Positions 1,548 through 37,986 of a stretch of DNA of 51,124 bases are shown here, one piece after another (the stretch's first letter is position 1; each line of letters starts with the position of its first letter). The notes under the pieces were generated by a model. That model searched no databases. It saw nothing but the letters and a program-made list of their open reading frames with translations, and was not told where the DNA came from. Origin of the DNA: an uncultured Helicobacteraceae bacterium (lineage in GTDB: Bacteria > Campylobacterota > Campylobacteria > Campylobacterales > Sulfurimonadaceae); the NCBI GenBank assembly GCA_947311765.1, contig CAMZLS010000007.1, positions 1-51,124 of the forward strand. Direction: 5' to 3'. Position numbers and translations under genes: made by a program.

Positions 1548-1583
1548 GCAAAACTTTTAATTAGATTACATGTAAGGTTTTTT

Positions 1584-4343
1584 ATGGACTACAAAGAGAC
1601 ACTCCTCTTACCAAAAACAGATTTTCCAATGCGTGGAAATCTCGCAAACAATGAGCCAAAGCGTTATAAGACGTGGTATGATAAAGATGTTTATTCTAAA
1701 ATGAAGAGATTGCGTAGTGATGCGGACTCTTTTACGCTACATGATGGACCTCCGTATGCGAATGGGCATATTCATATCGGTCATGCTCTCAATAAAATTT
1801 TAAAAGATATTATTGTCAAACATAACTATTTTAATGGTAAATCTGTGCGTTTAACACCAGGCTGGGACTGCCATGGTCTGCCTATTGAACAACAAGTTGA
1901 GAAAAAACTTGGCGGTAAAAAGAAAAAAGAGCTCTTAAACACTGGTGAAGTAAGAAAACTTTGCCGCGAACATGCTGTAAAATTTGTAGATATTCAGCGT
2001 GATGAGTTTAAAACTATGGGAATTATTGCAGATTGGGAAAAACCTTATCTGACAATGGATTATAAGTTTGAAGCCAATATCTATCGCACGCTATGTGATG
2101 TTGCTAAAAAAGGACTGCTTATTGAGCGTTCTAAGCCAGTATATTGGTCTTGGGCAGAGCGAACAGCACTTGCAGAGGCGGAAGTAGAGTATGAAGATAA
2201 AGAGTCTCACTCTATCTATGTCGCTTTTGAGTTAAATGATGAAGCAAAGCTACGTCTCTCTATCGAAGGCGACGCTGCACTTATTATCTGGACAACAACA
2301 CCGTGGACACTCCCAGCAAATACAGGAATTTCTCTCAATCCTGAGGAGAAGTATGTTCGCAGTGCTGATGGCTATATCGTAGCACAAAAACTTTATGAGA
2401 GTATGCGAGAACTTGAGGTTGTCAAAGGCGAAGTAGTTCAAACTTTTGAGGCAAGTGTATTTGAAAATCTCCACGCTATCAACCCTCTTAATGGTCGTAG
2501 CTCTCATATCGTTCTTGGTGAACATGTTTTGATGGACAGTGGAACGGGATGTGTCCATACTGCTCCTGGGCATGGGGAAGATGATTACCGTATTGGCCTA
2601 AAATATAATCTTGAAGTTATCATGCCTGTTGATGAGACGGGATGCTTTGATACAACAGTTGTAAAAGAGAAACTTCTTCCAAATGCAGAAGAGTTTGTAG
2701 GCAAACATATCTTTAAATCAAATGATGCCATCTTAGAACTTCTTGATAATAAACTCTTACATGTAAGCAAATTTACTCACTCTTATCCGCACTGTTGGCG
2801 TTCACATACGCCACTGATTTTTCGTGCTACTAAGCAGTGGTTTATCTCTGTAGATGAGACTCCAGAAGGAGAGAGTAAAACACTTCGTGAAATTGCAGTT
2901 GATGAAGTCGCTAAAACAGATTTCTATCCCGAAACAGGGCGTAAGCGTTTGAGTTCTATGGTAGAAAATCGCCCAGATTGGTGTATCTCTCGTCAGCGTG
3001 ATTGGGGTGTGCCCATCGCATTTTTTCGTGTAAAAGCGACAGGTGAAGTCATCTTAGATGAGAAAGTGCTTAACTTTGTAGCTATGGTTTTTGAGATGCA
3101 AGGAAGTGATGCTTGGTACAACATGCCAACTGAACAGCTTCTTTATCCAGGTTCTGGTTATAGCGCTGATGAGGTAGAAAAAGTCACTGATATTTTAGAT
3201 GTCTGGTTTGATAGTGGTTCTACTTGGAATGCGGTTTTAAAATCACGCAACTATGATGCAGGTGCGTATCCAACTGATCTGTATCTTGAAGGTTCAGACC
3301 AGCATCGTGGCTGGTTCCAATCTTCACTCTTTTTAAGTGCAGCAGTGCAGCATAAAGCACCATACAAAGGTGTGCTTACTCACGGTTTTACGGTTGATGC
3401 TAAGGGTGAGAAGATGTCTAAGTCTAAAGGCAATGTTATCGCTCCTGAGAAAGTTATCAAGCAATATGGCTCTGAGATTTTACGTTTGTGGGTGGCTATG
3501 AGTGATTATCAAGGGGATCTGAAAATCTCTGATGATATCTTGAAACAGACTTCTGAGAGTTACCGTAAACTAAGAAATACTTTTAGAATAATGCTCGCTA
3601 ATATCAATGATTTAGAGACTGTTATGGCGTATGAAGATCTCAATATACTCGATCAGTGGATTGTCTCAAAAGCCTCCAAAGTTTTTGCAGATGTGCATGC
3701 TAACTTTGAAAAGTATAACTATGTACAAGGTATGAGTCTTTTAAATAATTTTATTGTTAATGATTTAAGCGGGATTTATATAGATGTGACAAAAGATCGT
3801 CTCTATTGTGATGCGAAAGATGACGCGCACCGTCGTGCTAGTCAGAGTGCTATGGCGATAATCACAAAGGCTCTGCTTGGCTTAATGGCTCCAATCTTAA
3901 CCTATACAGCAGATGAGATTTTAGAATCAGCGCCAGCAGTTGTTCGAGGAGATGCAAATGATATCTTTGAATTTCAATATGAAGCTATTGATGTAGCGCA
4001 AGTTGATTTTGCTGAGACTTATATGATGAGTGCGAGAGAGAAATTTTCTGAAATAGTTGATGGACTGAAAAAAGAGAAAACTATCAAGGCTACTTTAGAG
4101 TTAATTATCCAGACATCATCAAGCACTATTGCATCATTACAGAGTGTTGAGGCAGAAGATTGGTTTGTTGTTTCGGGAATTAGTACAAATGCAGTTGCTA
4201 AAGAAGCTGGACGCTTTGAGATTGATGGCGATGTTTTTGTTGTGGGCTTTACAGAAGCTGAAAAATGCCCACGCTGTTGGAAATACCAAGCTCTCTCACA
4301 AGACCTTACATGTAAGCGTTGTGAAAAGGTGCTCAGTGCCTAG
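1584..4343 (+). CDS. ileS: Isoleucyl-tRNA synthetase
   Basis: This class I synthetase charges tRNA-Ile in the cytoplasm and edits misactivated valine. At 919 residues it has the usual bacterial length. The HIGH motif (residues 64-67) follows the typical PPYANG segment, and KMSKS is at 610-614. The connective editing domain with its TTTPWTLPAN region lies between them, and the C-terminal zinc ribbon has two CxxC pairs (CPRC and CKRC). Part of the second pair is encoded by a TTACATGTAA copy at 4306. ATG 1584 is preceded by AAGG. The gene heads a run including a small membrane peptide (8-base overlap), gatA and guaB. Confidence 0.98.
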   Translation: MDYKETLLLPKTDFPMRGNLANNEPKRYKTWYDKDVYSKMKRLRSDADSFTLHDGPPYANGHIHIGHALNKILKDIIVKHNYFNGKSVRLTPGWDCHGLPIEQQVEKKLGGKKKKELLNTGEVRKLCREHAVKFVDIQRDEFKTMGIIADWEKPYLTMDYKFEANIYRTLCDVAKKGLLIERSKPVYWSWAERTALAEAEVEYEDKESHSIYVAFELNDEAKLRLSIEGDAALIIWTTTPWTLPANTGISLNPEEKYVRSADGYIVAQKLYESMRELEVVKGEVVQTFEASVFENLHAINPLNGRSSHIVLGEHVLMDSGTGCVHTAPGHGEDDYRIGLKYNLEVIMPVDETGCFDTTVVKEKLLPNAEEFVGKHIFKSNDAILELLDNKLLHVSKFTHSYPHCWRSHTPLIFRATKQWFISVDETPEGESKTLREIAVDEVAKTDFYPETGRKRLSSMVENRPDWCISRQRDWGVPIAFFRVKATGEVILDEKVLNFVAMVFEMQGSDAWYNMPTEQLLYPGSGYSADEVEKVTDILDVWFDSGSTWNAVLKSRNYDAGAYPTDLYLEGSDQHRGWFQSSLFLSAAVQHKAPYKGVLTHGFTVDAKGEKMSKSKGNVIAPEKVIKQYGSEILRLWVAMSDYQGDLKISDDILKQTSESYRKLRNTFRIMLANINDLETVMAYEDLNILDQWIVSKASKVFADVHANFEKYNYVQGMSLLNNFIVNDLSGIYIDVTKDRLYCDAKDDAHRRASQSAMAIITKALLGLMAPILTYTADEILESAPAVVRGDANDIFEFQYEAIDVAQVDFAETYMMSAREKFSEIVDGLKKEKTIKATLELIIQTSSSTIASLQSVEAEDWFVVSGISTNAVAKEAGRFEIDGDVFVVGFTEAEKCPRCWKYQALSQDLTCKRCEKVLSA

Positions 4344-7788: not shown

Positions 7789-8928
7789 GTGACATTCCAG
7801 CCATACCCCTTTGAAAAATTAAACAAACTTTTAGAAGACATCACTCCAAATAAGAACTTAGAACCTTCGGTTTTAACCATAGGTGAGCCTCAGTTTGAGA
7901 CACCTGAATTTATTCAAAATGCACTCAAAGAGGCGACACCGCTACTGAAAAAATATCCCAAGACAACAGGAGAGAGCTATCTACGCGAGGCTATGAGAGG
8001 TTTTATGCACAGGCGTTTTGGTGTAAACCTTGATAACTCGCAGATTATTCCTAGTTTTGGAACAAGAGAGGTGCTTTTTAACTTTCCACAATTTTTACTT
8101 TTTGATAAAGAGCGGCCAACTATGGCATTTACAAACCCTTTTTATCAGATTTATGAGGGTGCGGCTATCGCTTCACGCTCAAAAACTATCTATCTCAATC
8201 TTAACAAAGATAATAGCTTCAAGCCTGAGATAGATAAAAAGCAGCTAGCACAATGTGACTTGGTGATTATCAATTTTCCAAATAATCCAACTGCTTCAAG
8301 CATGAGTATTGAAGAGCTAGGCAAGTGGGTAAAACTAGCACTAAAATACGATTTTGTTTTACTCAACGATGAGTGTTATAGTGAAATATATACGGATACA
8401 CCACCTCCATCACTTCTTGAAGCTTCCTTGCATGTAAGCAATGATAAGTTTAAAAATATCCTTGTTATCAACTCTATCTCTAAACGCTCCTCAGCCCCAG
8501 GACTGCGTTCAGGCTTTATAGCTGGAGATGCGCAGATTCTAAAAGAGTATATGAAGTACCGCACCTATATCGGGGCTGCTTCACCTCTGCCTCTGCAAGT
8601 TGCCGCTGCCACGGCGTGGACGGACGAGAAGCATGTCAGTTTTGCAAGAGCAGTGTATAAGAAAAATTTTGAAATTGCACAAGAGATTTTAGGAACGCAG
8701 ATACCCGAAGCGACCTTTTATATCTGGTTACATGTAAAAGATGCTTTAGTCTTTACATGTAAGCTCTACGAAAAATACAATGTCAAAGTCTTGCCAGGTG
8801 AGTTTTTAGGTCGGGAGGATGCGAGAGTGAATCCTGCAAAAGATTATATTCGTATTGCCTTGGTGGAAAATGAGACAAAAACGCGAGAAGCATTGATGAG
8901 AATTAAGGAGTGTTTAGATGAGCAGTAA
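7789..8928 (+). CDS. Class I/II PLP aminotransferase, probable succinyldiaminopimelate transaminase (DapC-like)
   Basis: A fold-type I aminotransferase of 379 residues with a GTG start. Visible signatures are the NFPNNPT segment, the DECY/SEIY region binding the cofactor, and the PLP lysine Lys232 in SISKRSSAPGLRSG. Epsilonproteobacteria place this aminotransferase next to murC (as in the HP0624-HP0623 order of Helicobacter pylori, by recall), and related proteins are annotated as N-succinyldiaminopimelate aminotransferase. That would supply meso-diaminopimelate for peptidoglycan, fitting the murC neighbour. Substrate is inferred from context. Two TTACATGTAA copies (8728, 8753) lie only 25 bases apart here. 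Confidence 0.8.
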   Translation: MTFQPYPFEKLNKLLEDITPNKNLEPSVLTIGEPQFETPEFIQNALKEATPLLKKYPKTTGESYLREAMRGFMHRRFGVNLDNSQIIPSFGTREVLFNFPQFLLFDKERPTMAFTNPFYQIYEGAAIASRSKTIYLNLNKDNSFKPEIDKKQLAQCDLVIINFPNNPTASSMSIEELGKWVKLALKYDFVLLNDECYSEIYTDTPPPSLLEASLHVSNDKFKNILVINSISKRSSAPGLRSGFIAGDAQILKEYMKYRTYIGAASPLPLQVAAATAWTDEKHVSFARAVYKKNFEIAQEILGTQIPEATFYIWLHVKDALVFTCKLYEKYNVKVLPGEFLGREDARVNPAKDYIRIALVENETKTREALMRIKECLDEQ

Positions 8929-9421: not shown

Positions 9422-10725
9422 AGTATCACTTTATAGGCATAGGCGGTATCGGCATCTCAGGCTTAGCCAAATATATGTACTTTCGTGGGCATAAGGTGAG
9501 TGGTTCGGATATCAAAGAGTCTGTTATCACAAGAAAACTCGAATCAGAAGGCTTACATGTAAGCATTCCTCAAGTAGCACAAAATATCACCGACCAAGAG
9601 TGTGTTATCCATTCTGCTATTATTCGAGGAGATAATCCCGAAGTTTTAGAGGCAAAAGCGAAGGGTATTAAAGTGATGGCAAGACGCGAGGCACTTTTGG
9701 AGATTTTACATGATTCTAAAGTCTATGCGGTCGCAGGCGCACATGGAAAAAGCACCACCTCAGCTATCCTCTCTTCTATCATGCACGGTTCAGCTATTAT
9801 TGGGGCGGAGTCTAAGGAGTTTGGCTCAAATGTGCGCTATTGTGATGATAGCGATATCTTGATTTTTGAAGCCGATGAGAGTGATGGAAGTTTTTTAAAT
9901 TCTAATCCTTTTGTTGCTATCGTAACCAATGCCGAGCCTGAGCATATGGAGTATTATAATTACGACGAGGAGCTTTTTTATAACTGTTATAGAGAGTTTA
10001 TCCAAAAAGCTCCGTGGCGTGTTTTAAATGCAGAAGATCCTTTTTTAAGCACGATAGATGGTGATGCTACGCGTCTTTATCCAAGCAGAGATATCAGAAA
10101 TATTGAGTATATTTTAAAAGGCGATGAGCCTTATACACGCTTTACATGTAAGGATTATGGAATCTTTGAGGTGTGGGGTTTTGGCAAGCATATTGCACTA
10201 GACGCAGCCTTAGCTATCTTAGCAGCTGAGAAGAGTATGGATATGGAAGATATCCGTAAAAATGTCTTACACTACAAGGGTATCAAAAAGCGTTTTGATA
10301 TCCTCTCAAGTGATGAAAATGTAGTGATAATAGATGATTATGGACACCATCCTACGGAAATAAAAGCAACTTTGGAGTCTGTGCAAGTTTACAAAAAGTT
10401 AAAAAAAATAGAACATATCATTGCCATCTGGCAACCGCATAAATACTCACGAACACTGGATAATCTTGAGGCTTTTAAGGCTTGTTTTGAGGGGGTCGAT
10501 TCGCTTGTTATTCTTCCTGTATGGGCGGCGGGTGAGGCGGAGGTTTTTATAGATTTTGAAAAAGAGTTTTCTCATTATAATCTGAGCTTGGTAGAGAGAC
10601 TTAATCGCGCAGACAATAGTATTGCATTAATAAAAGATGATACAATAGTGCAAATTTTAGATAGTGGATTGATAGTTGGTTTCGGTGCTGGCGATATCAC
10701 CTATCAGATACGAGGGCAAAAATGA
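9418..10725 (+). CDS. murC: UDP-N-acetylmuramate--L-alanine ligase
   Basis: MurC adds L-Ala to UDP-MurNAc, the first peptide step of peptidoglycan synthesis in the cytoplasm. The 435-residue protein has the N-terminal GIGGIGISGLA nucleotide-sugar loop, the ATP loop GAHGKSTTS (about residues 104-112), EADESDGSF, the central-domain NAEPEHMEYY and the C-terminal DDYGHHPTEI motif. It overlaps both neighbours by four bases and carries TTACATGTAA copies at 9553 and 10142. Confidence 0.97.
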   Translation: MKYHFIGIGGIGISGLAKYMYFRGHKVSGSDIKESVITRKLESEGLHVSIPQVAQNITDQECVIHSAIIRGDNPEVLEAKAKGIKVMARREALLEILHDSKVYAVAGAHGKSTTSAILSSIMHGSAIIGAESKEFGSNVRYCDDSDILIFEADESDGSFLNSNPFVAIVTNAEPEHMEYYNYDEELFYNCYREFIQKAPWRVLNAEDPFLSTIDGDATRLYPSRDIRNIEYILKGDEPYTRFTCKDYGIFEVWGFGKHIALDAALAILAAEKSMDMEDIRKNVLHYKGIKKRFDILSSDENVVIIDDYGHHPTEIKATLESVQVYKKLKKIEHIIAIWQPHKYSRTLDNLEAFKACFEGVDSLVILPVWAAGEAEVFIDFEKEFSHYNLSLVERLNRADNSIALIKDDTIVQILDSGLIVGFGAGDITYQIRGQK

Positions 10726-11051
10726 GTTATATTTTAGGTTTATTAGCAGTAGGCGTTTTCTTTTTGGTATTGCATAATCTCACAGAACTTGAGAAAAATC
10801 AGAAAAATCTTATCGTAGCAGTTTTACTAGGGCTTATCTTAAGTATGTATCTCTTCAATCTTTACTCAGATGTTCAGCGAGAAAAGGTTTTAAATGTTGT
10901 TATAGAGTACAAGCAGAATAAAACCCTTACATGTAATGGTATAGATGTTAATCAAACAAACTTCTCTTATAGCGTAGGAACACAAACATTTATAGGACGT
11001 GAAAACACTCCACATTATGGAAGATTGATTAGTGCTACAGAGTGTGAATAA
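10722..11051 (+). CDS. Small membrane protein following murC
   Basis: A 109-residue protein with two hydrophobic N-terminal helices (about residues 2-18 and 29-48) and a polar C-terminal part of about 60 residues that probably faces the periplasm. It contains a few cysteines but no motif I can name. It overlaps murC by four bases. A small membrane protein after murC is also found in Helicobacter and Campylobacter (HP0622-like by position, from memory). Function unknown; a TTACATGTAA copy at 10927 supplies the Thr-Cys of LTCNG. Confidence 0.75.
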   Translation: MSYILGLLAVGVFFLVLHNLTELEKNQKNLIVAVLLGLILSMYLFNLYSDVQREKVLNVVIEYKQNKTLTCNGIDVNQTNFSYSVGTQTFIGRENTPHYGRLISATECE

Positions 11052-18049: not shown

Positions 18050-18961
18050 ATGAAAAAGATACTTTTAGCAATAGTGCTAGTAAACTTACAAGTCTTGGCT
18101 TTTGAGTATGGTTTAACTCCTGTAAAAGTGAATGAAAGCATTTACTGCTATTTTGGTAAGCCCGAAGTAATGAATAAAGAAAATAATGGAAATATGGTAA
18201 ATTCATGTTTCGTTAATATGGGAACAAGTTGGCTTGTCATCGACTCTGGTCCCTCTTACATGTACGCCAAAGAAGCACTCTTACATGTAAACAAAATTAA
18301 AAAAATGCCAGTGAAATTTGTGATAAACACTCATATTCATGACGATCATTGGCTTGGTAATGGTTATTTTGCTAGTCATGGAGCGACTATCATTGGTTCT
18401 ATGCTGTTTAAAAAAGAGATTCATTCTGATGAAACTCCTAGAATGGCGCATCGTATCTCCTCAGAGGCTTATGCCAATACAGTACCTACCATTCCCAGTA
18501 GATTTGTTTCTAAGGATGAAGATCTTGATATTGCTAGCTTACATGTAAAGCTTATTAATGTGGATTATAAAGCACATACGAATGGTGATCTTCTAGTGTA
18601 CATTCCTAAAATCAAAACACTTTTTGTAGGGGACTTGCTTTTTAATGATCGTTTGCCTTCTTTGCGTGATGGTGATATAAATGGTTGGTTGAAAGCACTT
18701 GAGATGATTAAAACCATGAACACAAGGACTCTTATTGGCGGACATGGCGATATTACAAACAAAAAGGCTTTGGATTTAACATATGAATATCTCACTAAAC
18801 TTCGCGAAAAAGTTCGTAAAGCGCTTGAAGAAGAGAAGGACATTTCTGAGGCACTAGAGTCTATCACAATGAAAGAGTATGAAGATACGGCACTCTTTGA
18901 TGTGATGCATAAACAAAATGTTGAAGTAGCATACCGAATGCTGGAATGGGAAAGTGAATAA
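18050..18961 (+). CDS. Secreted metallo-beta-lactamase-fold hydrolase, SoxH-like
   Basis: The 303-residue protein has a signal peptide (about 1-17) and the zinc motif THIHDDH (residues 94-100), with further metal-site segments AHTNGD, GDLLFND and GGHGD. Its position behind soxB matches SoxH-type proteins of sox clusters, whose reaction is not settled; hydrolysis of a thiol or persulfide adduct is an inference. TTACATGTAA copies at 18281 and 18539 encode Leu-His-Val segments. It begins nine bases after soxB with an AGGAAAG site. Confidence 0.85.
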   Translation: MKKILLAIVLVNLQVLAFEYGLTPVKVNESIYCYFGKPEVMNKENNGNMVNSCFVNMGTSWLVIDSGPSYMYAKEALLHVNKIKKMPVKFVINTHIHDDHWLGNGYFASHGATIIGSMLFKKEIHSDETPRMAHRISSEAYANTVPTIPSRFVSKDEDLDIASLHVKLINVDYKAHTNGDLLVYIPKIKTLFVGDLLFNDRLPSLRDGDINGWLKALEMIKTMNTRTLIGGHGDITNKKALDLTYEYLTKLREKVRKALEEEKDISEALESITMKEYEDTALFDVMHKQNVEVAYRMLEWESE

Positions 18962-28082: not shown

Positions 28083-30002
28083 TTAGACTTTCTTAAGATA
28101 AACAACGCCTAGTGGTGGGAGTGTTACATGTAAGGTATTTTTGCGTCCGTGACACTCTTTTGGTACTGTTTTTATAGGTAGGGGATTTATAATATCCCAG
28201 CCTTCAAACTCTGAGTATTGGGAGTTGAAAATCTCTTCATACATGCCTCGCTTGGAAACACCTATGTTGTAGCCTGTATGGGTCTGGTCTGAAAAGTTAC
28301 AGATGATGATGATATCTTTATCTTTTGCATTTCCCTTGCGAATGAAACTGATAACATTTGCCTCATTATCATTTTCATCTATCCACTCAAAACCTTTTGA
28401 TTCTACATCATTTTTATGTAAGGCTCCCTCTTCTTGGTAGAGTTTGTTGAGTGTTTTTATAAGGTTTTGCATCCCTTTATGCTGAGGCTGTTCACAAAGA
28501 TGCCAGTCTAAACTCTGCTCATAGTTCCACTCTGCAAATTGGGCAAATTCTCCTCCCATAAAGAGAAGTTTTTTACCAGGGTGTGCCATCATTAAGCTAA
28601 ACATTGAACGAAGATGTGCAAACTTTTGATTATTGTCTCCTGGCATCTTGTTGATAAGTGAGCCTTTCATATGAACAACCTCATCATGAGAGAGTGGGAG
28701 CGTATAGTTTTCATTATACATGTAAACAAAACTAAAGGTTAATGTATCATGATGATGCTGTTTATATATTGGGTCAAGTTTAAAATACTTCAAGGTATCA
28801 TGCATCCAGCCCATATTCCATTTATAACCAAATCCTAAGCCACCTTTATCGACAGGACGGCTCACCATAGGGAAATTTGTGGACTCTTCAGCAAACATCA
28901 TAATATCGCTAAATTCATCATAAACACTAGAGTTAAGCTGTTTTAAAAACTTAATAGCACCAAGGTTTTCATTGCCTCCGTGTTCATTAGGAAGCCACTC
29001 ACCCTCTTCTCGACCAAAATCAAGATAGAGCATGGAAGCTACCGCATCAACACGGATACCATCAATATGATATTTTTCTAGCCAAAACATTGCAGAGCTA
29101 ATCAAAAATGCTCGTACTTCATTGCGCTCATAATTAAAAATTGCACTTTTCCATTGTGGATGGTAGCCTAAGCGTGGGTCTTTATGCTCGTATAGACAGG
29201 TTCCATCAAAATTCATCAAACCATGCCCATCGGTAACAAAATGAGAAGGTACCCAATCCAAAATTACACCAATATTGTGCTCATGCATAATAGCTACAAA
29301 ATCCATAAAATCTTGCGGTGAACCATAACGCGCTGTCGGAGCGAAATAGCCTGTCACTTGATAGCCCCAAGAACCCTCAAAAGGAAATTCAGTAATAGGA
29401 AGAATCTCTATATGGGTAAAATTCATCTCATTGAGATAGAGTGCTAACTCTTGCGCAGACTCTTTATATGTTAAAAAACGATTGCCCTCCTCTACCTTAC
29501 GCCGCCATGAGCCTAAATGCACCTCATAGATAGAAATTGGGGCTTTATGAGAATTTCTTTTATGGCGTGATTTCATCCAAATTTTATCATTCCACTCATA
29601 ATTTTCAATATCACAGACTCGCGAAGCAGAACTTGGTGCTACCTCAGCATAGAAGGCGAAAGGGTCTGATTTATCAGTGTTTGCATTATCTCCATCACCT
29701 AAGATATGATAGCGATAGGTTACGCCTAGTTGAACATTTTCAACAAAACCTTCCCAAATTCCAGACCCATCTTCACGACACTTCAAGGGGTGTGAATGGA
29801 TATCATAGTTATTAAAATCAGCACGAACAGAGACAGAGTGGGCATTAGGTGCCCAGACTGCAAAGTATGTACCATTTTTTCCATAACGCTCCATCTGATG
29901 TGCTCCAAGGCACTTGTATAACTTTGTGTGTGTTCCCTCTTTAAAGAGGTATATATCTAATTCACTAAAACGGCTTACATCATGAAATATTGGATAAGGC
30001 AT
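28083..30002 (-). CDS. glgB: 1,4-alpha-glucan branching enzyme
   Basis: GlgB makes alpha-1,6 branches in glycogen (family GH13). The 639-residue protein has an N-terminal CBM48-like domain (VWAPNAHSVSVRADFN), the GH13 regions DWVPSHF, DGIRVDAVASMLYLD (nucleophile Asp), FAEEST (acid Glu) and LSHDEVVH, and a C-terminal beta domain. It is the last gene of the minus-strand glycogen run, 11 bases after glgA. A TTACATGTAA copy lies near its 3' end (28124). Its stop lies five bases from the stop of the convergent ABC transporter. Confidence 0.97.
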   Translation of the reverse strand: MPYPIFHDVSRFSELDIYLFKEGTHTKLYKCLGAHQMERYGKNGTYFAVWAPNAHSVSVRADFNNYDIHSHPLKCREDGSGIWEGFVENVQLGVTYRYHILGDGDNANTDKSDPFAFYAEVAPSSASRVCDIENYEWNDKIWMKSRHKRNSHKAPISIYEVHLGSWRRKVEEGNRFLTYKESAQELALYLNEMNFTHIEILPITEFPFEGSWGYQVTGYFAPTARYGSPQDFMDFVAIMHEHNIGVILDWVPSHFVTDGHGLMNFDGTCLYEHKDPRLGYHPQWKSAIFNYERNEVRAFLISSAMFWLEKYHIDGIRVDAVASMLYLDFGREEGEWLPNEHGGNENLGAIKFLKQLNSSVYDEFSDIMMFAEESTNFPMVSRPVDKGGLGFGYKWNMGWMHDTLKYFKLDPIYKQHHHDTLTFSFVYMYNENYTLPLSHDEVVHMKGSLINKMPGDNNQKFAHLRSMFSLMMAHPGKKLLFMGGEFAQFAEWNYEQSLDWHLCEQPQHKGMQNLIKTLNKLYQEEGALHKNDVESKGFEWIDENDNEANVISFIRKGNAKDKDIIIICNFSDQTHTGYNIGVSKRGMYEEIFNSQYSEFEGWDIINPLPIKTVPKECHGRKNTLHVTLPPLGVVYLKKV

Positions 30003-30013
30003 AACAGACTCCT

Positions 30014-31480
30014 TTATGAGTTGTGTTTTTCTATAGCGTATCGATAGACATCTTCATAAGATTTTGCGGCATCATCCCAACCAAAGTGCATTTTCATTGC
30101 ATTTTTTTGTAAGGTTTGAAAAGCTTTTTGATTATTATGATACACACTTACTGCCCACATGACAGTATGATACAATGCCTCATGTGTTGCATCATAAAAC
30201 TTAAATCCATTGCCACTCATCTGCTCTTCATTAAAGTTCTCTATCGTATCATCTAGCCCACCTGTTGCACGAACGATAGGAAGGGTTCCATAACGCAGAG
30301 AGTAGATTTGATTAAGTCCGCACGGCTCAAAGAGTGAAGGCATTAAAAACATATCACTTCCTGCTTCTATCTGGTGAGCAAGTGCATCACTATAACCTAC
30401 ATGTAAGCCAAATTTTCCAGCGTGACGCGAGGCGACTTCGCTAAAATAGTTCTCTGCCCATTTTTCACCTGTTCCTAAGATAATAATCTGCAAATCTTGA
30501 GCTAATAAGCCATCTATAACACCAGAAATCAATCCTATACCTTTTTGCTCTGCAAAACGCCCAACAAAACCTAAAAGAGGAGTATCATCACGCTCTTCAA
30601 GTCCAAAATGCTTCTGCAAAGCACGCTTACATGTAAGCTTTCCATCCATATCACCTAGATCAAACATTTGAGGCAAATATTTGTCAATGGCAGGACTCCA
30701 CTCATCATAATCAACCCCATTTAAGATACCAAATAGTTTTTCTGAGTGTGCTTGTATATGATGCTCTAAACCAAAACCAAATTCTGAGGTTTGAATCTCC
30801 TTTGCGTAACCTGAAGAAACAGTTGTCACAGCATCAGCATGAGCTATACCACCCTTGAGAAGATTAAGCTGGTCGTGACTTTCAAACTCTCGAGTATTAA
30901 AATGATCCCAACCTATCTCCAATACATCCACGCCACCTTTGAAAAAGTTTCCTTGATGTTGTAGGTTGTGAATAGTTAAAATACTCGCCGCATTTGCAAA
31001 ATCATGCACAAAACGGGTACGCATAAGAAGAGGAATCGCTGCTGTGTGCCAATCATTTGCATGGATAATATCGGGTACGAAATTTAGCATTTTACATAAT
31101 TGCAAAGAAGCCTTTGAGAGGAAAATAAAGCGGTTATCATTATCTATATATGATTCACCATGCTCTTCGTAGAGACCCTTACGCCCAAAAAACTGCTCAT
31201 AGTCTATAAAATAGATTGGTACTTCGCTTTCAGGCAAGGTGCTTGTATATACGCCTGCCCACAACTCTCCCATTGGTCCCATAGGTACACCTAAAGTACC
31301 ATCAACATGATTAAGCTTCGTCTTGTCTATCTGATAATATCGAGGCATCACTACAATAATATTGTGCCCTAGCTCTTTAAGTGCCTTAGGAAGCGCTCCT
31401 GAGACATCAGCCAAGCCTCCTGTTTTTGCAAAAGGGACGATTTCTGATGCGACAAATAAAATATTTAGTTTTTTACTCAT
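30014..31480 (-). CDS. glgA: Glycogen synthase, first of two tandem copies (downstream copy)
   Basis: This GT5 glycogen synthase of 488 residues transfers glucose from an NDP-glucose to glycogen. It has the N-terminal KTGGLADVSGALPKAL donor-binding motif, HANDWHTA, and the GT-B C-terminal motif PSLFEPCGLNQ. It overlaps the upstream second glgA by eight bases. The two copies are clearly paralogous but not recent duplicates; whether they differ in donor or primer use cannot be read from sequence. Confidence 0.95.
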   Translation of the reverse strand: MSKKLNILFVASEIVPFAKTGGLADVSGALPKALKELGHNIIVVMPRYYQIDKTKLNHVDGTLGVPMGPMGELWAGVYTSTLPESEVPIYFIDYEQFFGRKGLYEEHGESYIDNDNRFIFLSKASLQLCKMLNFVPDIIHANDWHTAAIPLLMRTRFVHDFANAASILTIHNLQHQGNFFKGGVDVLEIGWDHFNTREFESHDQLNLLKGGIAHADAVTTVSSGYAKEIQTSEFGFGLEHHIQAHSEKLFGILNGVDYDEWSPAIDKYLPQMFDLGDMDGKLTCKRALQKHFGLEERDDTPLLGFVGRFAEQKGIGLISGVIDGLLAQDLQIIILGTGEKWAENYFSEVASRHAGKFGLHVGYSDALAHQIEAGSDMFLMPSLFEPCGLNQIYSLRYGTLPIVRATGGLDDTIENFNEEQMSGNGFKFYDATHEALYHTVMWAVSVYHNNQKAFQTLQKNAMKMHFGWDDAAKSYEDVYRYAIEKHNS

Positions 31481-32852
31481 AAGTATCCTTCATATAGAGT
31501 TTTATATATGACTGAGTACGATTAGCAAAAGAGAAATCACACTGCATATCAAAAGTCATCATAGTATTTTTTTTCTCTCTTGTAAGCCTTAGAGCTCTCT
31601 CTATCGTATCTAAAAAAGCTTTTTTTGTAGGTTTTAAAAATATAAAACCTTGTCCACAACTTTTTTCATCTTCAAAAACAGTATCAAAAAGTCCTCCAAC
31701 ACCATGGACTATAGGAATTGTTCCATAGCGCATAGCTATCATCTGATTCAGTCCACATGGCTCAAAAAGCGAGGGCATTAGTAAAAAATCTCCTCCTGCA
31801 TAGATTCGGTGAGATAAGGCTTCATCATAGCCGTAAAGAAGAGTAAAATTTTCATTTTTTTGAGCTATTTTTTCCAAAGGCTTTCGATAATGGCTGTCAC
31901 CCTCCACTAAGAGTACAAAATTCAAGCGTTTTTCCAAGATTGGTTTGAGACTCTGTAGCAAAAGATCAAAACCTTTTTGCTCCACTAGACGGCTAATCAT
32001 TACAAAAAGAGCTTTTCTCGGATCTTTCAGTTTCAGCTCTTTTAAGAGTGCTTTTTTATTAAGGTATTTAGCATCAATATTTTGAGCGCTATAGTTTGCA
32101 ACAAGCGCTTTATCTGTTTGTGGGTCAAAAAGTGATGTATCGATACCATTTAAGATACCTACAAGTTTTTTACTATGAAAAGATAAAAACCCCTCAAGTC
32201 CACAGCCAAATTTTTCTGTAAGTATCTCTTTTGCATATTGAGGACTTACGGTAGTAAGCATATCACTATATGCAATACCTGCTTTCATAAAATTGATATT
32301 ACCATAAAATTCCAAAGCATCCATCGTAAAATAGTTTGTATCAATACCCAAACGCCCTAACGAGGAGTAATCAAAAATACCCTGATAAGCAAGATTATGA
32401 ATGGTAAAAACAGTTCTTATTTTCAAAGAGCGTTCTTGAATATAGAGTGCTGACAAGGCTGTATGCCAATCATTAAGATGTATGACATCAGCCTTTACAT
32501 GTAAGGCTAATTCTACAATAGCACGAGAAAAAATACCAAACCTTAAATCATCATTTGAGTAGCCATAAGGCTCTTGTGTTGTACTTAACACAGGAGCGTG
32601 AATAAAAAAGGTTTTTACATTTTTATTTTGAACTGAATAAATACTCACAAGATACGATATTCCACCTAAGATAAGTGTAAAATCTAAAGGCTCTTTTGTA
32701 AAAGCAGACTTATCCATAAACCCGTACAGAGGCATCACTGAAACTATATCAATCTTCTCTGAAAGTGCCTGAGGAAGTGCTCCTGCTACATCTGCTAAGC
32801 CTCCTGTTTTTGCAAAGGGAAAAATTTCACTTGATGCAAAAAGAGTTTTCAT
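31473..32852 (-). CDS. glgA: Glycogen synthase, second tandem copy (upstream copy)
   Basis: A second GT5 protein of 459 residues with KTGGLADVAGALPQAL, HLNDWHTA and PSLFEPCGLNQM. All GT5 motifs including the catalytic lysine and the glutamates of the C-terminal motif are present, so it should be active. It is about 30 residues shorter than the neighbouring copy. Its start overlaps the galT-like stop by one base. The tandem pair may divide chain initiation and elongation, as suggested for organisms with two glycogen synthases. Confidence 0.93.
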   Translation of the reverse strand: MKTLFASSEIFPFAKTGGLADVAGALPQALSEKIDIVSVMPLYGFMDKSAFTKEPLDFTLILGGISYLVSIYSVQNKNVKTFFIHAPVLSTTQEPYGYSNDDLRFGIFSRAIVELALHVKADVIHLNDWHTALSALYIQERSLKIRTVFTIHNLAYQGIFDYSSLGRLGIDTNYFTMDALEFYGNINFMKAGIAYSDMLTTVSPQYAKEILTEKFGCGLEGFLSFHSKKLVGILNGIDTSLFDPQTDKALVANYSAQNIDAKYLNKKALLKELKLKDPRKALFVMISRLVEQKGFDLLLQSLKPILEKRLNFVLLVEGDSHYRKPLEKIAQKNENFTLLYGYDEALSHRIYAGGDFLLMPSLFEPCGLNQMIAMRYGTIPIVHGVGGLFDTVFEDEKSCGQGFIFLKPTKKAFLDTIERALRLTREKKNTMMTFDMQCDFSFANRTQSYIKLYMKDTYE

Positions 32853-33907
32853 TAGATCTCTTTAGAGTTCAAAAGAGAGGCGCACTCTTCTGGTGAAACA
32901 GGGTTGATTGCCATGCCTGTTGCTATTTCAAAACCGCCAAGACGATAAATTCTAGGTGTTATGCGAATAGTAAAACGATAATTTTTATGTAGATAATCCA
33001 TATATGGTTCATTTTCAAAATTGCTATTGAGTGGTGGCAGACGGAAGAAAAGGTTATAATCAAACTCACCTAATTGCTGTTTGAGTTTTTGAAAAAGATG
33101 ACGCAATAGCAAGGCAAGCTCGCCTAGCTCATCACGAGAGCACTCTTCTAAACTCTTAATATTACGCCTAGGAGCAATCATCACCTCAAAAGGAAAAGCG
33201 CTTGCAAAGGGACAAAAAGCGACAAAGCTTCCAAGCTCTTCAACAATACGCTCCTTACATGTAAGCTCATTTTCTAAAATATCCTCTACTTTTCCACGAC
33301 CATGACGACGATAATATTGTAGATTTCGTTCTAAAAATGTTAATTCACTTTGAGGCATTATAGGCAAAGCAAGTATCTGTGTATGAGGATGTGCTTGCGT
33401 GGCGCCTGCGCTAGCACCAACATTTTTAAAGATACTAAAATGTACCAAACGATGATCATTTTTCAAATCATCAATTCGGATTATAATACTGCGTAACCAA
33501 TTTTCAATAGATTGGGTATCTAAACCTTCAATACCGCAATCATGGCAAGTTGAATCGATAAGCACCTCGTGAGCGCCTACGCCCGGGATAGATTCAAACA
33601 TTCCATTACGACGAGATTTATCTTCAAGTTCAACTTGAACTGCCTTATACAAATTTGGAACAACGCGTGTTTTCCAGTGAGGGGCATTGGCTTCATTATC
33701 GCGTATAGCAAAAACCTCAGGTGGTGTTAAAGACTCATTGCCTTCACAAAAAGGGCATCTACTCGCAAGAAGAGGCTTATCTATTTTGTTTGTATATTCT
33801 CTAAAATGCGAAGACATACCCTTAGGGTACAAATCAGGACGATGCAGACGCTCTGGAGCAATAATAACATATTGATTATGAAGTCGATCACGTCGTATTT
33901 CAGACAT
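32852..33907 (-). CDS. galT: GalT-family nucleotidylyltransferase (galactose-1-phosphate uridylyltransferase-like)
   Basis: The 351-residue protein belongs to the GalT branch of the HIT superfamily: zinc cysteines CPFC (51-54), GAHEVLID, and the active-site HPHTQ (173-177) that carries the covalent nucleotide. Classical GalT exchanges UMP between UDP-glucose and galactose-1-phosphate. No galK or galE is nearby and the gene sits in a glycogen operon, so it may instead interconvert NDP-glucose and glucose-1-phosphate. GalT-family enzymes with ADP-glucose phosphorylase activity are known in plants. It overlaps the GH57 gene by eight bases. Confidence 0.85.
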   Translation of the reverse strand: MSEIRRDRLHNQYVIIAPERLHRPDLYPKGMSSHFREYTNKIDKPLLASRCPFCEGNESLTPPEVFAIRDNEANAPHWKTRVVPNLYKAVQVELEDKSRRNGMFESIPGVGAHEVLIDSTCHDCGIEGLDTQSIENWLRSIIIRIDDLKNDHRLVHFSIFKNVGASAGATQAHPHTQILALPIMPQSELTFLERNLQYYRRHGRGKVEDILENELTCKERIVEELGSFVAFCPFASAFPFEVMIAPRRNIKSLEECSRDELGELALLLRHLFQKLKQQLGEFDYNLFFRLPPLNSNFENEPYMDYLHKNYRFTIRITPRIYRLGGFEIATGMAINPVSPEECASLLNSKEI

Positions 33908-35936
33908 TTGAGACTCCTAATTTTATATTGAGCTCAAGATTTTCTTTAAAATCAGATGAAAATAGCAGTGAAATTTGCTGTGATACTGTATCAAACCCAC
34001 TTTCACTTTGCGAAACAGTTTTGAGCGTGTAGGCACTTATATTGGATTTTTTACTAAGTGTTAGAGTGAGCTTTTTTTGAGTAAAAGTATCTATAATCTC
34101 TAGGCTATCAATATCTAAAAAATCCAAACCATCTTCCATAAGTTTAGCATTTAATATACATAAATGAGGATGGGCAAAATGCAAATTAAACTCTGCACCA
34201 TAATACAGTTTCTCTTTATACTCACTCTTACATGTAAGGCTTAATGAAATACTACTGTCTTCAAACTTATACTGCTTTACAAGTGTAGTTGGATACTCTT
34301 TATCTAAGTAAATACCACCATTACGACTGAAAGTATGATTTTTTTCATCAAGCACAAAGGCTTGATTTGCAAAATCTCCTACTTCATGAAAAGAGGCTTT
34401 TTTAAAACGCTCTAACTCAAAAGGATTTGGTGAAAAGTGGTCAATAAAAGAATATTTAGGATGCCAATCATAAATCAGTTGCGCTTTTAAATCTTCATCT
34501 ATTACATCATCATTACCATGAATGGTTGCAATCTCATCAGCAGGATTTTCTTGGCTTACATGGAAGACTTTTTTAGGATGTAAAATCTTCTCATGGTAGG
34601 CCTCTTTACGGCGCATCAGCGTGTTTTGCCAGTTAAAAAGAGACTCTAATGAACCAAATTCTACCATCTGCCCACCAAACTTACTTGAAAAAACAAGTGA
34701 AAGTTCACGCGTCAATACCTTGAGCTCATCATAGCCATCTCTGTCTATATCAGCTACTTCAAAAGCTATCTTTTTCTTTGCAAAAGAGCGTTCTATATCA
34801 AGAAGATATGTGTAAGCATTATCGCGTAGATTTGGAAGGTAAAGTCCTCCAAAAACGCCATGCCAAAAGACATCATTTGTCTGGAGTTTATAGAGGCTTT
34901 CAAGAGCATTTTTTGTCAGCTTGTCTTGATTGATACTGTGTGAGAGCATACGCTTATGCAGATAATTACTCTCATGATATTTGATAAAAAAGTTTTTCCA
35001 GATTCCGCCTTTGATAAAAGCAACACCCATACTATCAAAATACTCATCGCCTACATCTTCTTTAAGTTTTTCAAGAGCCAAAGTCTGCTCGCTTCGCAAA
35101 CTCCACTCACCCATCTCAAAATAAGAGGTATTGTTAAGATAAGCAATGCCTTTTGAGCGATTCTCTTGCAGATACGCCTTGTAATGCTTCGTCTCGATAC
35201 GCTCATTTTTTAAAACAGCTTCTACAAAACCCTCTAACCATTTTTTCTCATACACCCACTCATGCGTTTCAGGCCAGAGTCCAAATTTTTCGGCATCATC
35301 AAAGATAATCGCAGCTGAGTTTTCATTTTGTGCGCATCCTAAGATTGCATCAATTGCACGATCTACACTAAAAAACGGAAGTGCATACCGTAGTGATTGA
35401 GAGATAGGAAAGAGCGCTAAAGGATATCCCCCCTCCTCCGTCTCATAATATCCATCCATATTTTTTGTATCAAAACCACTACTTAAAAAATGGTAATCAT
35501 CCACAACGGCGTATTTGATACCCGAAGCATGTAAATCAGGAACTAAAGAAGATTCCCACACACGCTCAGTGAGCCATAAACCACTCGGTTTTTCTCTAAA
35601 ATTTTTCTCTATAAAGATATTTAATTTATTGATTTGTGCTTGACGGTCACGCGAAGGGATAGCACTCAATACTGGTTCATAATAGCCCGCACTTACCCAT
35701 TCAATAGCACCTTTTTGTGTCAATTTTTTCATATTTGAAAAAATTTTTGGGTGCTTTTGCTTAATCTGCTCTAGTAACCAACCGCTACAGTGCACTGCAA
35801 ATTTAAAATCTGGGTATTTCGCCATTGTTTCAAAAAATGGCCCATAACATAAGTCTATAGCTTCATCAACTGACTCACCAAAATTATCAACAGGTTGGTG
35901 CATGTGAATTCCCAATAAAAGAGAAACTTTATTCAT
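33900..35936 (-). CDS. GH57-family 4-alpha-glucanotransferase or alpha-amylase
   Basis: A GH57 protein of about 678 residues. Motif 1 is HMHQP near the start, the nucleophile Glu lies in LWLTERVWE, and the acid Asp in IIFDDAEKFGLW. C-terminal DUF1925/DUF1926-like beta domains follow, the layout of 4-alpha-glucanotransferases. It rearranges alpha-1,4-glucans in the cytoplasm (no signal peptide). ATG 35936 is chosen because AGGAG lies ten bases upstream; longer starts crowd this site. It follows the second GH57 gene with no gap worth noting. Confidence 0.87.
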   Translation of the reverse strand: MNKVSLLLGIHMHQPVDNFGESVDEAIDLCYGPFFETMAKYPDFKFAVHCSGWLLEQIKQKHPKIFSNMKKLTQKGAIEWVSAGYYEPVLSAIPSRDRQAQINKLNIFIEKNFREKPSGLWLTERVWESSLVPDLHASGIKYAVVDDYHFLSSGFDTKNMDGYYETEEGGYPLALFPISQSLRYALPFFSVDRAIDAILGCAQNENSAAIIFDDAEKFGLWPETHEWVYEKKWLEGFVEAVLKNERIETKHYKAYLQENRSKGIAYLNNTSYFEMGEWSLRSEQTLALEKLKEDVGDEYFDSMGVAFIKGGIWKNFFIKYHESNYLHKRMLSHSINQDKLTKNALESLYKLQTNDVFWHGVFGGLYLPNLRDNAYTYLLDIERSFAKKKIAFEVADIDRDGYDELKVLTRELSLVFSSKFGGQMVEFGSLESLFNWQNTLMRRKEAYHEKILHPKKVFHVSQENPADEIATIHGNDDVIDEDLKAQLIYDWHPKYSFIDHFSPNPFELERFKKASFHEVGDFANQAFVLDEKNHTFSRNGGIYLDKEYPTTLVKQYKFEDSSISLSLTCKSEYKEKLYYGAEFNLHFAHPHLCILNAKLMEDGLDFLDIDSLEIIDTFTQKKLTLTLSKKSNISAYTLKTVSQSESGFDTVSQQISLLFSSDFKENLELNIKLGVSNV

Positions 35937-35949: not shown

Positions 35950-37986
35950 CTAGACAAACCAGTTTTCACTGTAATCTGTGCTTAAATCTAACTCTAATTC
36001 TCCAAAACCAGGCAGCGTTTGAACAACAAGCTCTTTCTCTTCAAATTCAAAACGGCATTGAATAATATTTACATCTATAGTTTTTTTAGAGATTCGTATC
36101 TCTAGCCATTTATCTGAAGAGACTTCAATTTCAATACCTTTATGCATCTGTTTATAATTTTTTTCTCTACAATCATTGCACTTTAAGCTTACATGTAAGG
36201 CTATTGGATCAATAGTAATATGGAAGGTATCGCTTTTAAAGAGTGCTTTCATATCCGCATCAAAGGCAAAATAGATATTATCTTCATCTTGTCCATAGTA
36301 GATTTTTCGCACAGGTCCACGAACTCTATCCATAGTTGAAAATAACTTACTTTCATCGACAACTCCACAGCCTATCCACTCAAAAAACGAGTCATGAATA
36401 CCATTGATATTTGGAGATATAGGCGACTGCGGTTGCAAGTGAAAATTTTGTGAACTTCTATTTTCAATAATTGGCTTAAAAAGATCACTAGGTGGTGAAA
36501 TGTGCATCAAATCATAAATAGCAATAAGATGGGAACGAAAAAGTGTGTCAAACTCTTGACCAAACTCAGTGAAGTGATCATCACCATACCACCAAAACCA
36601 ATCAGAACACTCTGAAGCTAAGAAATGCTCTATAATTTTTGCTTTTGTCTCATCATCTAAGTTCTCTTCATGATGCATAAAATCACGCTTAGTGAGATAA
36701 ATAAGTTCCCAACCACGCGTTTTTTCACTATGGCCTACCCAAGTATTAAACTCACCATGAATCCAACTTCCTGGGGCTAATCTCTCCAAAGGCTTTGCAG
36801 GCAACTTTGCCACATCATCCATATGAACGCTCTTGCACCACGGAGTATTCGCTAGTTTTGTATAGAGTGCATCAAAAAAATCAAAGGCATTATTTGGAAA
36901 AAATTCCCAAGCATTTTCACCATCTAAAATAACAAAGACAGTAGCATCACTGTTTTCACTATTGATAGGAGCGAGAGAATTGACAAAATGCTCTGCTGCC
37001 TTGCTTGCATCCCAAAAACGATAGGTAAAACCTATTAAATCACTCAAGGCGTGATCACGAAATCCCATACACATACCTTTATACATGTAAGGACTATAGA
37101 GCTCAGCTCTCTCTGAATCGCCTAATGATTTAAAGAGTATCGCCTCATCTGTAGCTATCCACTCAATCGCGCACTCTTTTAAAAGAGCAACGCTTTGCTC
37201 ATCAACAGCGCCTTCTGCTGGCCAAAAACCCTCACACTCAAAACCAAAAGTATCAAGAAAAAGAGTTTGTGCGCGTTCAATTTGAAGTCGCGCATCTTCT
37301 TGTAGCGGCATATGCTGTTTTGGAATATTAGTACTTTGATTTGCCCTTGTCGCATTATTCATATCCATCAGAAGTGGTAAAATAGGATGATTCAGAGGTG
37401 TAGTTGAGATAGAGATGCGCCCCTCTTTATGCAGTTGTGAATAATAAGGAAATAGCTTTTTAATAAAGACAACAAGTTCATACAGCAAAAGCTGCTTATC
37501 TTCTTGATTGAAGTGACATCCTTTTTTTATTAGGGTATCAATCAGAGCATTGTGAGAACGAAGATAGACTCCACACCATGAGAGCATAAAAAGCATCTCT
37601 AAATCACGAAGTTCTTCATTATTATAGTGCTCTTTGTCATATAAAGCCTTATATGTAGGCAGTGGAGCCACCATAGTATCATAAGGGGTGCTTTTACAGA
37701 TTTTAATTATCCATTGATGATCAATTTCACTTAAAGTTGATGGGTCATCTAACCATATTTTTAAAAATCTATCATGATTTTGAGGTTCATTATAATAGAG
37801 TTCAATCTGCTCGATAAGAGGGGGAGTAATATTAAAAGTAGCCTTGAGCCCCTCATGGCGAGAGAGCATCCAAGGCATATCATAGTAGTCTTTTATCGTA
37901 TGTAAAAAAACCCAAGGCATCTGCATGACACCTGATGCATCACGATAATCAGGCTGATGCATGTGCCACATAAAACTTAGATTCAA
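35950..37986 (-). CDS. GH57-family glycoside hydrolase, alpha-amylase/amylopullulanase type
   Basis: A second, different GH57 protein of about 678 residues. It has WHMHQPDYR at the start, GFWPAEGAVDE with the likely nucleophile region, FVILDGENAWEFF with the acid residue, and a C-terminal beta-rich domain. The subtype resembles amylopullulanase-like GH57 enzymes that hydrolyse alpha-1,4 and sometimes alpha-1,6 links. TTG 37986 is chosen: AAAGG precedes it by seven bases, it follows the previous stop by ten, and it yields the usual short lead before HMHQP. A longer ATG start at 38064 would overlap the upstream gene by 68 bases. Confidence 0.85.
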   Translation of the reverse strand: MNLSFMWHMHQPDYRDASGVMQMPWVFLHTIKDYYDMPWMLSRHEGLKATFNITPPLIEQIELYYNEPQNHDRFLKIWLDDPSTLSEIDHQWIIKICKSTPYDTMVAPLPTYKALYDKEHYNNEELRDLEMLFMLSWCGVYLRSHNALIDTLIKKGCHFNQEDKQLLLYELVVFIKKLFPYYSQLHKEGRISISTTPLNHPILPLLMDMNNATRANQSTNIPKQHMPLQEDARLQIERAQTLFLDTFGFECEGFWPAEGAVDEQSVALLKECAIEWIATDEAILFKSLGDSERAELYSPYMYKGMCMGFRDHALSDLIGFTYRFWDASKAAEHFVNSLAPINSENSDATVFVILDGENAWEFFPNNAFDFFDALYTKLANTPWCKSVHMDDVAKLPAKPLERLAPGSWIHGEFNTWVGHSEKTRGWELIYLTKRDFMHHEENLDDETKAKIIEHFLASECSDWFWWYGDDHFTEFGQEFDTLFRSHLIAIYDLMHISPPSDLFKPIIENRSSQNFHLQPQSPISPNINGIHDSFFEWIGCGVVDESKLFSTMDRVRGPVRKIYYGQDEDNIYFAFDADMKALFKSDTFHITIDPIALHVSLKCNDCREKNYKQMHKGIEIEVSSDKWLEIRISKKTIDVNIIQCRFEFEEKELVVQTLPGFGELELDLSTDYSENWFV

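What the first reader, a model, noticed from the sequence alone, without database searches (positions are those of the whole stretch)
1566..36198. TTACATGTAA is a highly iterated palindrome in this genome
The 10-mer occurs 21 times exactly in 51 kb. At about 36% GC, roughly 0.2 copies are expected, so enrichment is near 100-fold. The flanks are also biased: the next base is G in 17 of 21 copies and the preceding base C in 14 of 21, giving the 12-base palindrome CTTACATGTAAG (11 full copies). Copies occur in both strands' genes of unrelated function and lie inside coding sequence in 20 of 21 cases. This resembles HIP1 of cyanobacteria or DNA uptake sequences rather than an operator. I know of no described equivalent in Campylobacterota. 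Possible roles are DNA uptake or repair, nucleoid organisation, methylation or mismatch-repair marking.
Basis: partly seen in the sequence, partly recalled or inferred. Interest (0 to 1): 0.88.

Follow-up and report, generated by a model that had tools for sequence, protein, structure and literature searches.

The report
Methylation-linked repeated palindrome in Campylobacterota
A 10-letter DNA palindrome occurs about 870 times in this bacterium and is kept almost letter-perfect at the same places in related species, apparently tied to a stand-alone DNA-methylating enzyme, so it looks like a self-recognition mark on the chromosome, although its function has not been tested.

Summary
TTACATGTAA occurs 21 times in the window (shuffles: mean 0.14) and 866 times in the 1.98-Mb genome (reversed control 0). 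Of 200 genomes searched, 25 have at least 30 copies: Sulfurimonadaceae and Sulfurospirillum. Flanks around ACATGT differ by lineage (dialects). Sites are held in place: in the genes compared between two species of the window's genus, 22 of 22 coding copies with unchanged residues are intact, against 18.6% of other codon triplets; in Sulfurospirillum 18 of 20 against 20.7%. The core contains CATG, the inferred target of a nearby-endonuclease-free NlaIII/HpyI-type adenine methyltransferase found in 17 of 25 motif-rich and 28 of 175 other genomes. One Sulfurospirillum lost that gene from a syntenic locus; there 0 of 33 compared sites survive. The link is imperfect: six rich genomes have no detectable homologue, two only a diverged one, and G029 has the gene with few sites, so a second factor, a reader, is implied. 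Best guess: a methylation-marked self-recognition signal, probably for natural DNA uptake (compare Campylobacter CtsM), kept by molecular drive. Main rival: HIP1-style repair marking.

The parts
1566..1575 (.). motif copy, intergenic, 8 bp before a class I tRNA synthetase gene (ORF 1584-4343)
   Evidence: one mismatch in G001
2757..2766 (.). motif copy in the tRNA synthetase gene
   Evidence: exact in G001
4306..4315 (.). motif copy in the tRNA synthetase gene
   Evidence: exact in G001
8728..8737 (.). motif copy in aminotransferase gene; close pair with 8753
   Evidence: exact in G001
8753..8762 (.). motif copy in aminotransferase gene
   Evidence: exact in G001
9553..9562 (.). motif copy in Mur ligase gene
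   Evidence: exact in G001
10142..10151 (.). motif copy in Mur ligase gene
   Evidence: not kept in G001 (4 mismatches)
10927..10936 (.). motif copy in ORF 10722-11051 (no Pfam family)
   Evidence: exact in G001
13902..13911 (.). motif copy in histidine kinase gene
   Evidence: not compared with relatives
18281..18290 (.). motif copy in metallo-beta-lactamase-superfamily gene
   Evidence: not compared
18539..18548 (.). motif copy in metallo-beta-lactamase-superfamily gene
   Evidence: not compared
19824..19833 (.). motif copy in ORF 19488-20405 (weak DUF302)
   Evidence: not compared
23657..23666 (.). motif copy in class I (Glu/Gln-type) tRNA synthetase gene, minus strand
   Evidence: not compared
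25081..25090 (.). motif copy in HI0933-like flavoprotein gene, minus strand
   Evidence: exact in G001 and G005
25276..25285 (.). motif copy in HI0933-like flavoprotein gene
   Evidence: exact in G001, lost in G005
28124..28133 (.). motif copy in glycogen branching enzyme gene, minus strand
   Evidence: exact in G001
30627..30636 (.). motif copy in starch/glycogen synthase gene, minus strand
   Evidence: exact in G001 and G005
32495..32504 (.). motif copy in second starch/glycogen synthase gene
   Evidence: exact in G001
33255..33264 (.). motif copy in galactose-1-phosphate uridylyltransferase-like gene
   Evidence: exact in G001, lost in G005
34228..34237 (.). motif copy in GH57 glucanotransferase-like gene
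   Evidence: exact in G001
36189..36198 (.). motif copy in GH57 gene
   Evidence: not compared

Best explanation
The palindrome is a self-recognition mark on the chromosome. SHOWN: it is genome-wide, centred on ACATGT with lineage-specific flanks, and kept at fixed positions by selection or drive strong enough to freeze synonymous sites in the pairs compared; a D12-class adenine methyltransferase of the NlaIII/HpyI kind, with no ICEA endonuclease beside it, is associated with it, and in one Sulfurospirillum its absence goes with loss of every compared site. This would work like DNA uptake sequences of Neisseria and Pasteurellaceae, gated by methylation as in Campylobacter jejuni (CtsM, RAATTY).
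For: 866 copies, reversed control 0; patchy distribution over 200 genomes; dialects. Orthologous sites: 24 of 30 exact between G000 and G001 at 76% DNA identity, background 9-12%; 22 of 22 kept where residues are the same, against 18.6%; Sulfurospirillum 18 of 20 against 20.7%. Methyltransferase (E up to 1e-50) in 17 of 25 rich and 28 of 175 other genomes, Fisher p=1.8e-7 without correction for phylogeny; within family f1 14 of 21 against 10 of 100 (p=1.6e-7), outside it 3 of 4 against 18 of 75 (p=0.055). It lies beside recO (g1, g5), xseA (g4), tsaD (three g16 genomes) or at one locus in three Sulfurospirillum; no ICEA gene in 15 of 15 loci from rich genomes, while ICEA is next to homologues elsewhere. 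G193: gene missing from a syntenic locus, 0 of 33 G139 sites and 0 of 18 G181 sites left. Spacing close to random, low density on two plasmids, higher density between genes: as expected of a drive limited by coding constraint. Methylation-gated uptake exists in the phylum (PMC8468864, PMC10046745, passages).
Against: No uptake, methylation or binding data; no competence gene was searched for. Known uptake sequences are not palindromic (recalled). Of the 25 rich genomes, G052, G116 and G037 (99-100% complete) and G032, G040, G067 (80-83% complete) have no homologue of the enzyme, and G045 and G193 only a diverged D12 protein. G029 has the gene and 48 copies, and 28 other genomes have the gene and under 30 copies. 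The enzymes of rich genomes are not one clade (at least 3 changes on the tree), those of G057 and G062 group with enzymes of poor genomes. Absence of ICEA is not special to rich genomes: 82 of 100 loci lack it; in G062 the next gene carries a VRR-nuclease domain and in G051 another methyltransferase gene is adjacent. The whole Pfam family PF02086 does not separate the groups well: 15 of 18 rich, 11 of 18 other genomes. In g16 only 4 of 7 site comparisons (G016 with G057 or G062) are kept.
Confidence: 0.42

Rival explanations
1. HIP1-type mark for DNA repair: methylated sites tell a mismatch-repair or recombination system which strand or DNA to keep, and biased repair creates and keeps the palindrome as a by-product (Elhai's model for cyanobacteria).
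For: Same anatomy as HIP1: high-copy palindrome around a methyltransferase site, alternative sequences in relatives, deviations frequent at the outermost position. Enzyme beside recO or xseA in three genera. Spacing in G181 is somewhat more even than random (CV 0.81).
Against: The model saturates at about one site per 1000 bp, from which I would expect even spacing; here G000 and G139 are random to clustered (CV 1.08 and 1.02; 15 gaps up to 110 bp in G000 against 4.5 expected) at about one copy per 2.1-2.3 kb. A ratchet acting only next to methylated sites does not obviously explain why ACATGT outside TACATGTA is scarce (22 against about 60 expected in 281 kb of G000).
Confidence: 0.22
2. Binding site of a chromosome-organising or replication-linked protein (nucleoid, occlusion or segregation factor), selected for itself, methylation incidental.
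For: Conservation of single sites; dialects could be drift of a dimeric DNA-binding protein; G052 and G116 carry the motif without a detectable homologue of the enzyme.
Against: About 900-1300 copies at near-random spacing is far above known occlusion or segregation sites (recalled); none of the compared sites is left in G193.
Confidence: 0.15
3. Trace of a restriction-modification conflict: sites are kept or CATG elsewhere avoided because of a present or lost endonuclease.
For: The enzyme family is that of NlaIII/HpyI systems, ICEA beside homologues; CATG is mildly under-represented (843 against about 1070).
Against: Restriction leads to avoidance, not to hundred-fold enrichment and codon-level conservation of a 10-mer.
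Confidence: 0.05

Closest known systems
HIP1 and alternative HIPs of cyanobacteria (Elhai 2015, PMC4390886; outline, abstract, sections 2.3 and 2.6 and the first of two parts of 3.4 read)
   Same: Palindrome at roughly one per 1-2 kb, methyltransferase whose site lies in the core, alternative sequences in relatives, deviations frequent at the outermost position
   Different: Different sequence and phylum; AT-rich even in a 52% GC genome; 10-12 bp; dialects around one core; codon-level site conservation and a genome that lacks the enzyme and the sites are shown here; denser between genes
Methylation-gated uptake in Campylobacter jejuni (CtsM, RAATTY; passages in PMC8468864 and PMC10046745; the original paper is not held)
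   Same: Same phylum; adenine methylation of a short site marks self DNA
   Different: RAATTY is short and, as far as I recall, not enriched like this; here the site is long and enriched about 200-fold; uptake not tested
DNA uptake sequences of Neisseria and Pasteurellaceae (PMC1939737, abstract and outline only)
   Same: Hundreds to a thousand and more copies, near-matches, dialects (recalled), some close pairs able to form hairpins
   Different: Those are not palindromic and not linked to a methyltransferase (recalled)
NlaIII / HpyI (CATG) restriction-modification; M.HpyAI methylates CATG at adenine (PMC3936762, passages)
   Same: Methyltransferase of the same kind, by ICEA next to homologues and by annotation of homologues
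   Different: No ICEA beside it in the 15 loci from motif-rich genomes; housekeeping neighbours in several; specificity not measured

Membership tests
HIP (highly iterated palindrome) | palindrome strongly enriched genome-wide | tested here: met
   866 copies, reversed control 0; 108 against 0.5 in 281 kb
HIP (highly iterated palindrome) | methyltransferase whose site lies in the core is present in enriched genomes | tested here: inconclusive
   17 of 25 rich, 28 of 175 others; specificity CATG inferred from the family, not measured
HIP (highly iterated palindrome) | deviations concentrated at outer positions, core spared | tested here: inconclusive
   52 one-mismatch sites in 281 kb of G000: outermost 25, second 0, third 19, core 4 and 4; core spared, but the second position does not fit
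HIP1 proper | sequence GCGATCGC in cyanobacteria | tested here: not met
   TTACATGTAA in Campylobacterota
DNA uptake sequence | raises uptake of DNA that carries it | not testable with these tools
   needs a transformation assay
DNA uptake sequence | high copy number with lineage dialects | tested here: met
DNA uptake sequence | oriented, non-palindromic word (recalled) | tested here: not met
   perfect 10-bp palindrome with palindromic flank preference
CtsM-type methylation-gated uptake | orphan adenine methyltransferase for the site | tested here: inconclusive
   NlaIII-type gene without ICEA in 17 of 25 rich genomes by homology, neighbourhoods read in 15 loci
CtsM-type methylation-gated uptake | only methylated DNA is taken up | not testable with these tools
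   needs an uptake assay
NlaIII/HpyI-type methyltransferases | D12-class domain with DPPY motif and relation to ICEA-paired enzymes | tested here: met
   PF02086 2.2e-42; DPPYN invariant in 16 of 16; ICEA next to the homologue in G019; best structure match E. coli Dam, but weak, TM 0.41 and 12% identity; no direct comparison with the H. pylori or NlaIII protein
operator / regulon site | sits in promoters of co-regulated genes | tested here: not met
   97 of 116 copies in 298 kb of G000 inside ORFs; also between convergent genes
REP/BIME-type repeats | longer repeat unit outside genes | tested here: not met
   similarity ends about 2-3 bp beyond the 10-mer; mostly coding

The most novel reading that the evidence does not exclude
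A new kind of uptake signal: a long palindromic, methylation-gated DNA uptake sequence with genus-specific dialects, written by a domesticated restriction methyltransferase and read by an unknown pilus or periplasmic protein, that has arisen repeatedly in free-living Campylobacterota and would recast HIP-like palindromes as transformation signals.
Probability: 0.33. Interest if true: 0.92.

Novelty: new variant of a known kind. Interest (0 to 1): 0.78.

Why it matters
The function of HIP1 in cyanobacteria has long been open (recalled). Here is what looks like a second, independent system with useful contrasts: sister genomes with and without it, dialects, codon-level evidence that individual sites are maintained, and one lineage in which the methyltransferase is missing from its locus and all compared sites are gone. 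Sulfurospirillum diekertiae strain ACSDCE has been isolated (abstract of PMC8865925 in the listing; plasmid record), so methylation, uptake and repair can be tested.

Tried and rejected
Chance or composition: rejected (G005, 52% GC in the 77 kb read, has 1061 copies). Window-only feature: rejected. Operator or promoter element: rejected. Terminator: of 7 close pairs listed I folded 4, all form hairpins, but most copies are single. REP-like repeat: rejected. PF01555 methyltransferases as the partner: 9 of 18 rich and 9 of 18 other genomes. PF02086 as a whole: 15 of 18 and 11 of 18; only the subfamily search separates better. Active removal of sites in G193: considered because 0 of 33 is below the 20% of A/T-matched 10-mers, but among unchanged residues 0 of 9 against 24% is compatible with plain decay; G193 has 324 sites within one mismatch, 49 exact included, against a control of 119. 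Ratio of one-mismatch to exact sites as a general test of enzyme loss: not usable because of dialects. Sequence search of solved structures with the enzyme: nothing at E up to 1. Paper hits for the 10-mer and for TTTACATGTAAA looked like chance occurrences, judged from the listings only.

Not done: competence genes, a reader gene, methylation data, whole-genome Markov models, replichore bias, other methyltransferase families in G052 and G116.

Full report
Observation. The window holds 21 exact copies of TTACATGTAA where shuffles give 0.14. The genome (G000, 1.98 Mb, 148 contigs) has 866 copies and none of the reversed word. In 281 kb of it (the window plus 20 other stretches) there are 108 copies against 0.5 expected from an order-2 model; no other 10-bp palindrome comes near. 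With both strands folded together, the base outside the 10-mer is C in 70% and the next is C or G in 70%. One-mismatch sites are 52, of which 25 at the outermost position, 0 at the second, 19 at the third, 4 and 4 in the core. ACATGT outside TACATGTA is scarce: 22 against about 60 expected.

Distribution. Of 200 genomes searched (own genome included), 25 have at least 30 copies: both of the window's genus (866, 896), two of two of genus g5 (1061, 794), four of four of g4 (193-354), eight of eight of g16 (48-756), five of genus g2 (340, 397, 96, 77, 31), and all four of genus g37 (1220, 1309, 1099, 49). The other 175 have 0 to 22. That the window's family f1 is Sulfurimonadaceae is my inference.

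Dialects. Counts of ACATGT show that some Sulfurimonas with few exact 10-mers are still enriched: G063 has 2143 ACATGT (reversed control 398), 96 exact 10-mers and 854 within one mismatch, exact ones included. Stretches of 17 genomes, read around ACATGT, show different flanks: C at the outer position in G000, G016 and G051; C with a relaxed next position in the 52% GC genome G005; T in G139 and G181 (TTTACATGTAAA); T in G004 and G021, followed by A in G004; weak flanks in G063, G094, G068 and G120 (G063, G068, G120 and G045 rest on one 20-kb stretch each; G029 and G045 show no clear pattern).

Position. In 298 kb of G000, 97 of 116 copies are inside ORFs (61 as Leu-His-Val, 35 around Thr-Cys, 1 in the third phase); density per kb is 0.35 in ORFs and 0.95 outside. 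In G139 and G181 it is 0.26 and 0.31 against 3.0 and 2.6, and gaps between convergent genes are the richest (9 copies in 1.1 kb and 3 in 0.6 kb). Gaps between copies are near exponential (CV 1.08, 1.02 and 0.81 in G000, G139, G181); G000 has an excess of short gaps, 15 up to 110 bp against 4.5. Four of seven close pairs were folded and form hairpins. Two Sulfurospirillum plasmids carry 4 copies in 39.9 kb and 2 in 50 kb (the second is part of a 200-kb record of another strain), against 0.45 per kb on the G139 chromosome.

Sites are maintained. Between G000 and G001, 30 of 39 copies in three G000 stretches fell in aligned DNA (the other 9 were not counted); 24 are exact in G001 at 76% identity, background 9-12%; against G005, 6 of 10 at 69%, background 3-5%. 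Other pairs: G005 and G022 7 of 7 one way and 7 of 9 the other, G004 and G021 1 of 2, g16 4 of 7. At codon level, G000 to G001: 22 coding sites with unchanged residues, all 22 intact, while 18.6% of other unchanged codon triplets are identical; 6 sites with changed residues are all lost. G139 to G181 or G169: 18 of 20 against 20.7%, with 3 further sites lost with changed residues. G000 to G005: 4 of 5 against 7.8%, with 14 further sites lost with changed residues.

The methyltransferase. A D12-class adenine methyltransferase of about 330 residues (PF02086, 2.2e-42) with invariant DPPYN and a model whose best solved match is E. coli Dam, weakly (TM 0.41), lies beside recO in G000, G001, G005 and G022, beside xseA in G004 and G021, beside tsaD in G016, G057 and G062, and at one shared locus in G139, G169 and G181. 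Homologues elsewhere sit beside ICEA, the NlaIII-like endonuclease (recalled); ICEA was found in 18 of 100 loci scanned and in 0 of 15 from motif-rich genomes, so most loci of any kind lack it. H. pylori M.HpyAI methylates CATG (PMC3936762, passages); I did not compare its sequence, the link is by ICEA and by annotation of homologues. Homologues with E up to 1e-50 occur in 17 of 25 rich and 28 of 175 other genomes, p=1.8e-7 without phylogenetic correction; inside f1 14 of 21 against 10 of 100, outside 3 of 4 against 18 of 75, p=0.055. The enzymes of rich genomes are not one clade.

Natural loss. In G193 the DNA on both sides of the Sulfurospirillum locus aligns and the gene is absent (1275 bp shrunk to 474; about 18 bp of its 3' end align, no other remnant found). 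G193 is closer to G139 than G181 is (79.9% against 76.5% DNA identity; two proteins; distances only, no tree). G139 shares 23 of 25 sites with G181 or G169 (reverse direction 23 of 29), so these sites are taken as ancestral; in G193 0 of 33 G139 sites and 0 of 18 G181 sites are exact, and 0 of 9 with unchanged residues. G193 still has 49 copies, none in the 220 kb read.

Against. G052, G116 and G037 have motifs and no homologue; G032, G040 and G067 lack it but are 80-83% complete; G045 and G193 have only a diverged D12 protein. In 460 kb of G052 there are 66 copies against 1.2 expected. G029 has the gene, 70-72% identical to those of G057 and G062 and 66-67% to some of poor genomes, with 48 copies. 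So the enzyme alone is not sufficient and, as far as these searches can tell, not strictly needed; a reader is implied.

Mechanism and novelty. Site-by-site conservation, dialects, low density on two plasmids and near-random spacing fit a drive by preferential uptake or recombination; the phylum has a methylation-gated uptake system. HIP1 is nearest in anatomy and the repair model the main rival. Searches of the held library for the 10-mer, two 12-mers, HIP and uptake terms with these taxa showed no description in the listings; passages of four papers on relatives or with CATG hits held none either. Subscription papers, preprints and REBASE were not searched. I rate it a new variant of a known kind.

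Noticed in passing
window 36199-51124: No motif copy in 14.9 kb although about 6.5 would be expected at the genome average; possibly acquired DNA (GC 35.6% against 37.0% in the rest of the window).
   Followed up: partly
L085:7656-8672: The methyltransferase gene of the window's genome itself holds three motif copies (8102, 8489, 8561), two of them kept in G001.
   Followed up: partly
L126:10709-10732, L007:12812-12839, L005:1075-1103, L016:3754-3777: Close motif pairs 14-19 bp apart between genes form stable hairpins; the one in L126 has longer arms and a T-rich tail like a terminator.
   Followed up: partly
G193 (49 copies; none in 220 kb): The remaining copies of the motif in this genome lie in parts not read, perhaps clustered in recently acquired DNA.
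   Followed up: no
L042:475-2511: In G193 a 678-residue ORF joins a C5-cytosine and a D12 adenine methyltransferase domain.
   Followed up: no
G005 against G000: The two genera with the enzyme beside recO differ strongly in GC (about 52% in 77 kb of G005, 36% in G000) and still share motif sites.
   Followed up: partly
window 28083-38064: Two starch/glycogen synthase genes side by side and two GH57 genes near a branching enzyme: a glycogen locus with duplicated parts.
   Followed up: no
window 370-1467: CinA-type gene (competence-damaged protein family, PF02464) near the edge of the window.
   Followed up: no
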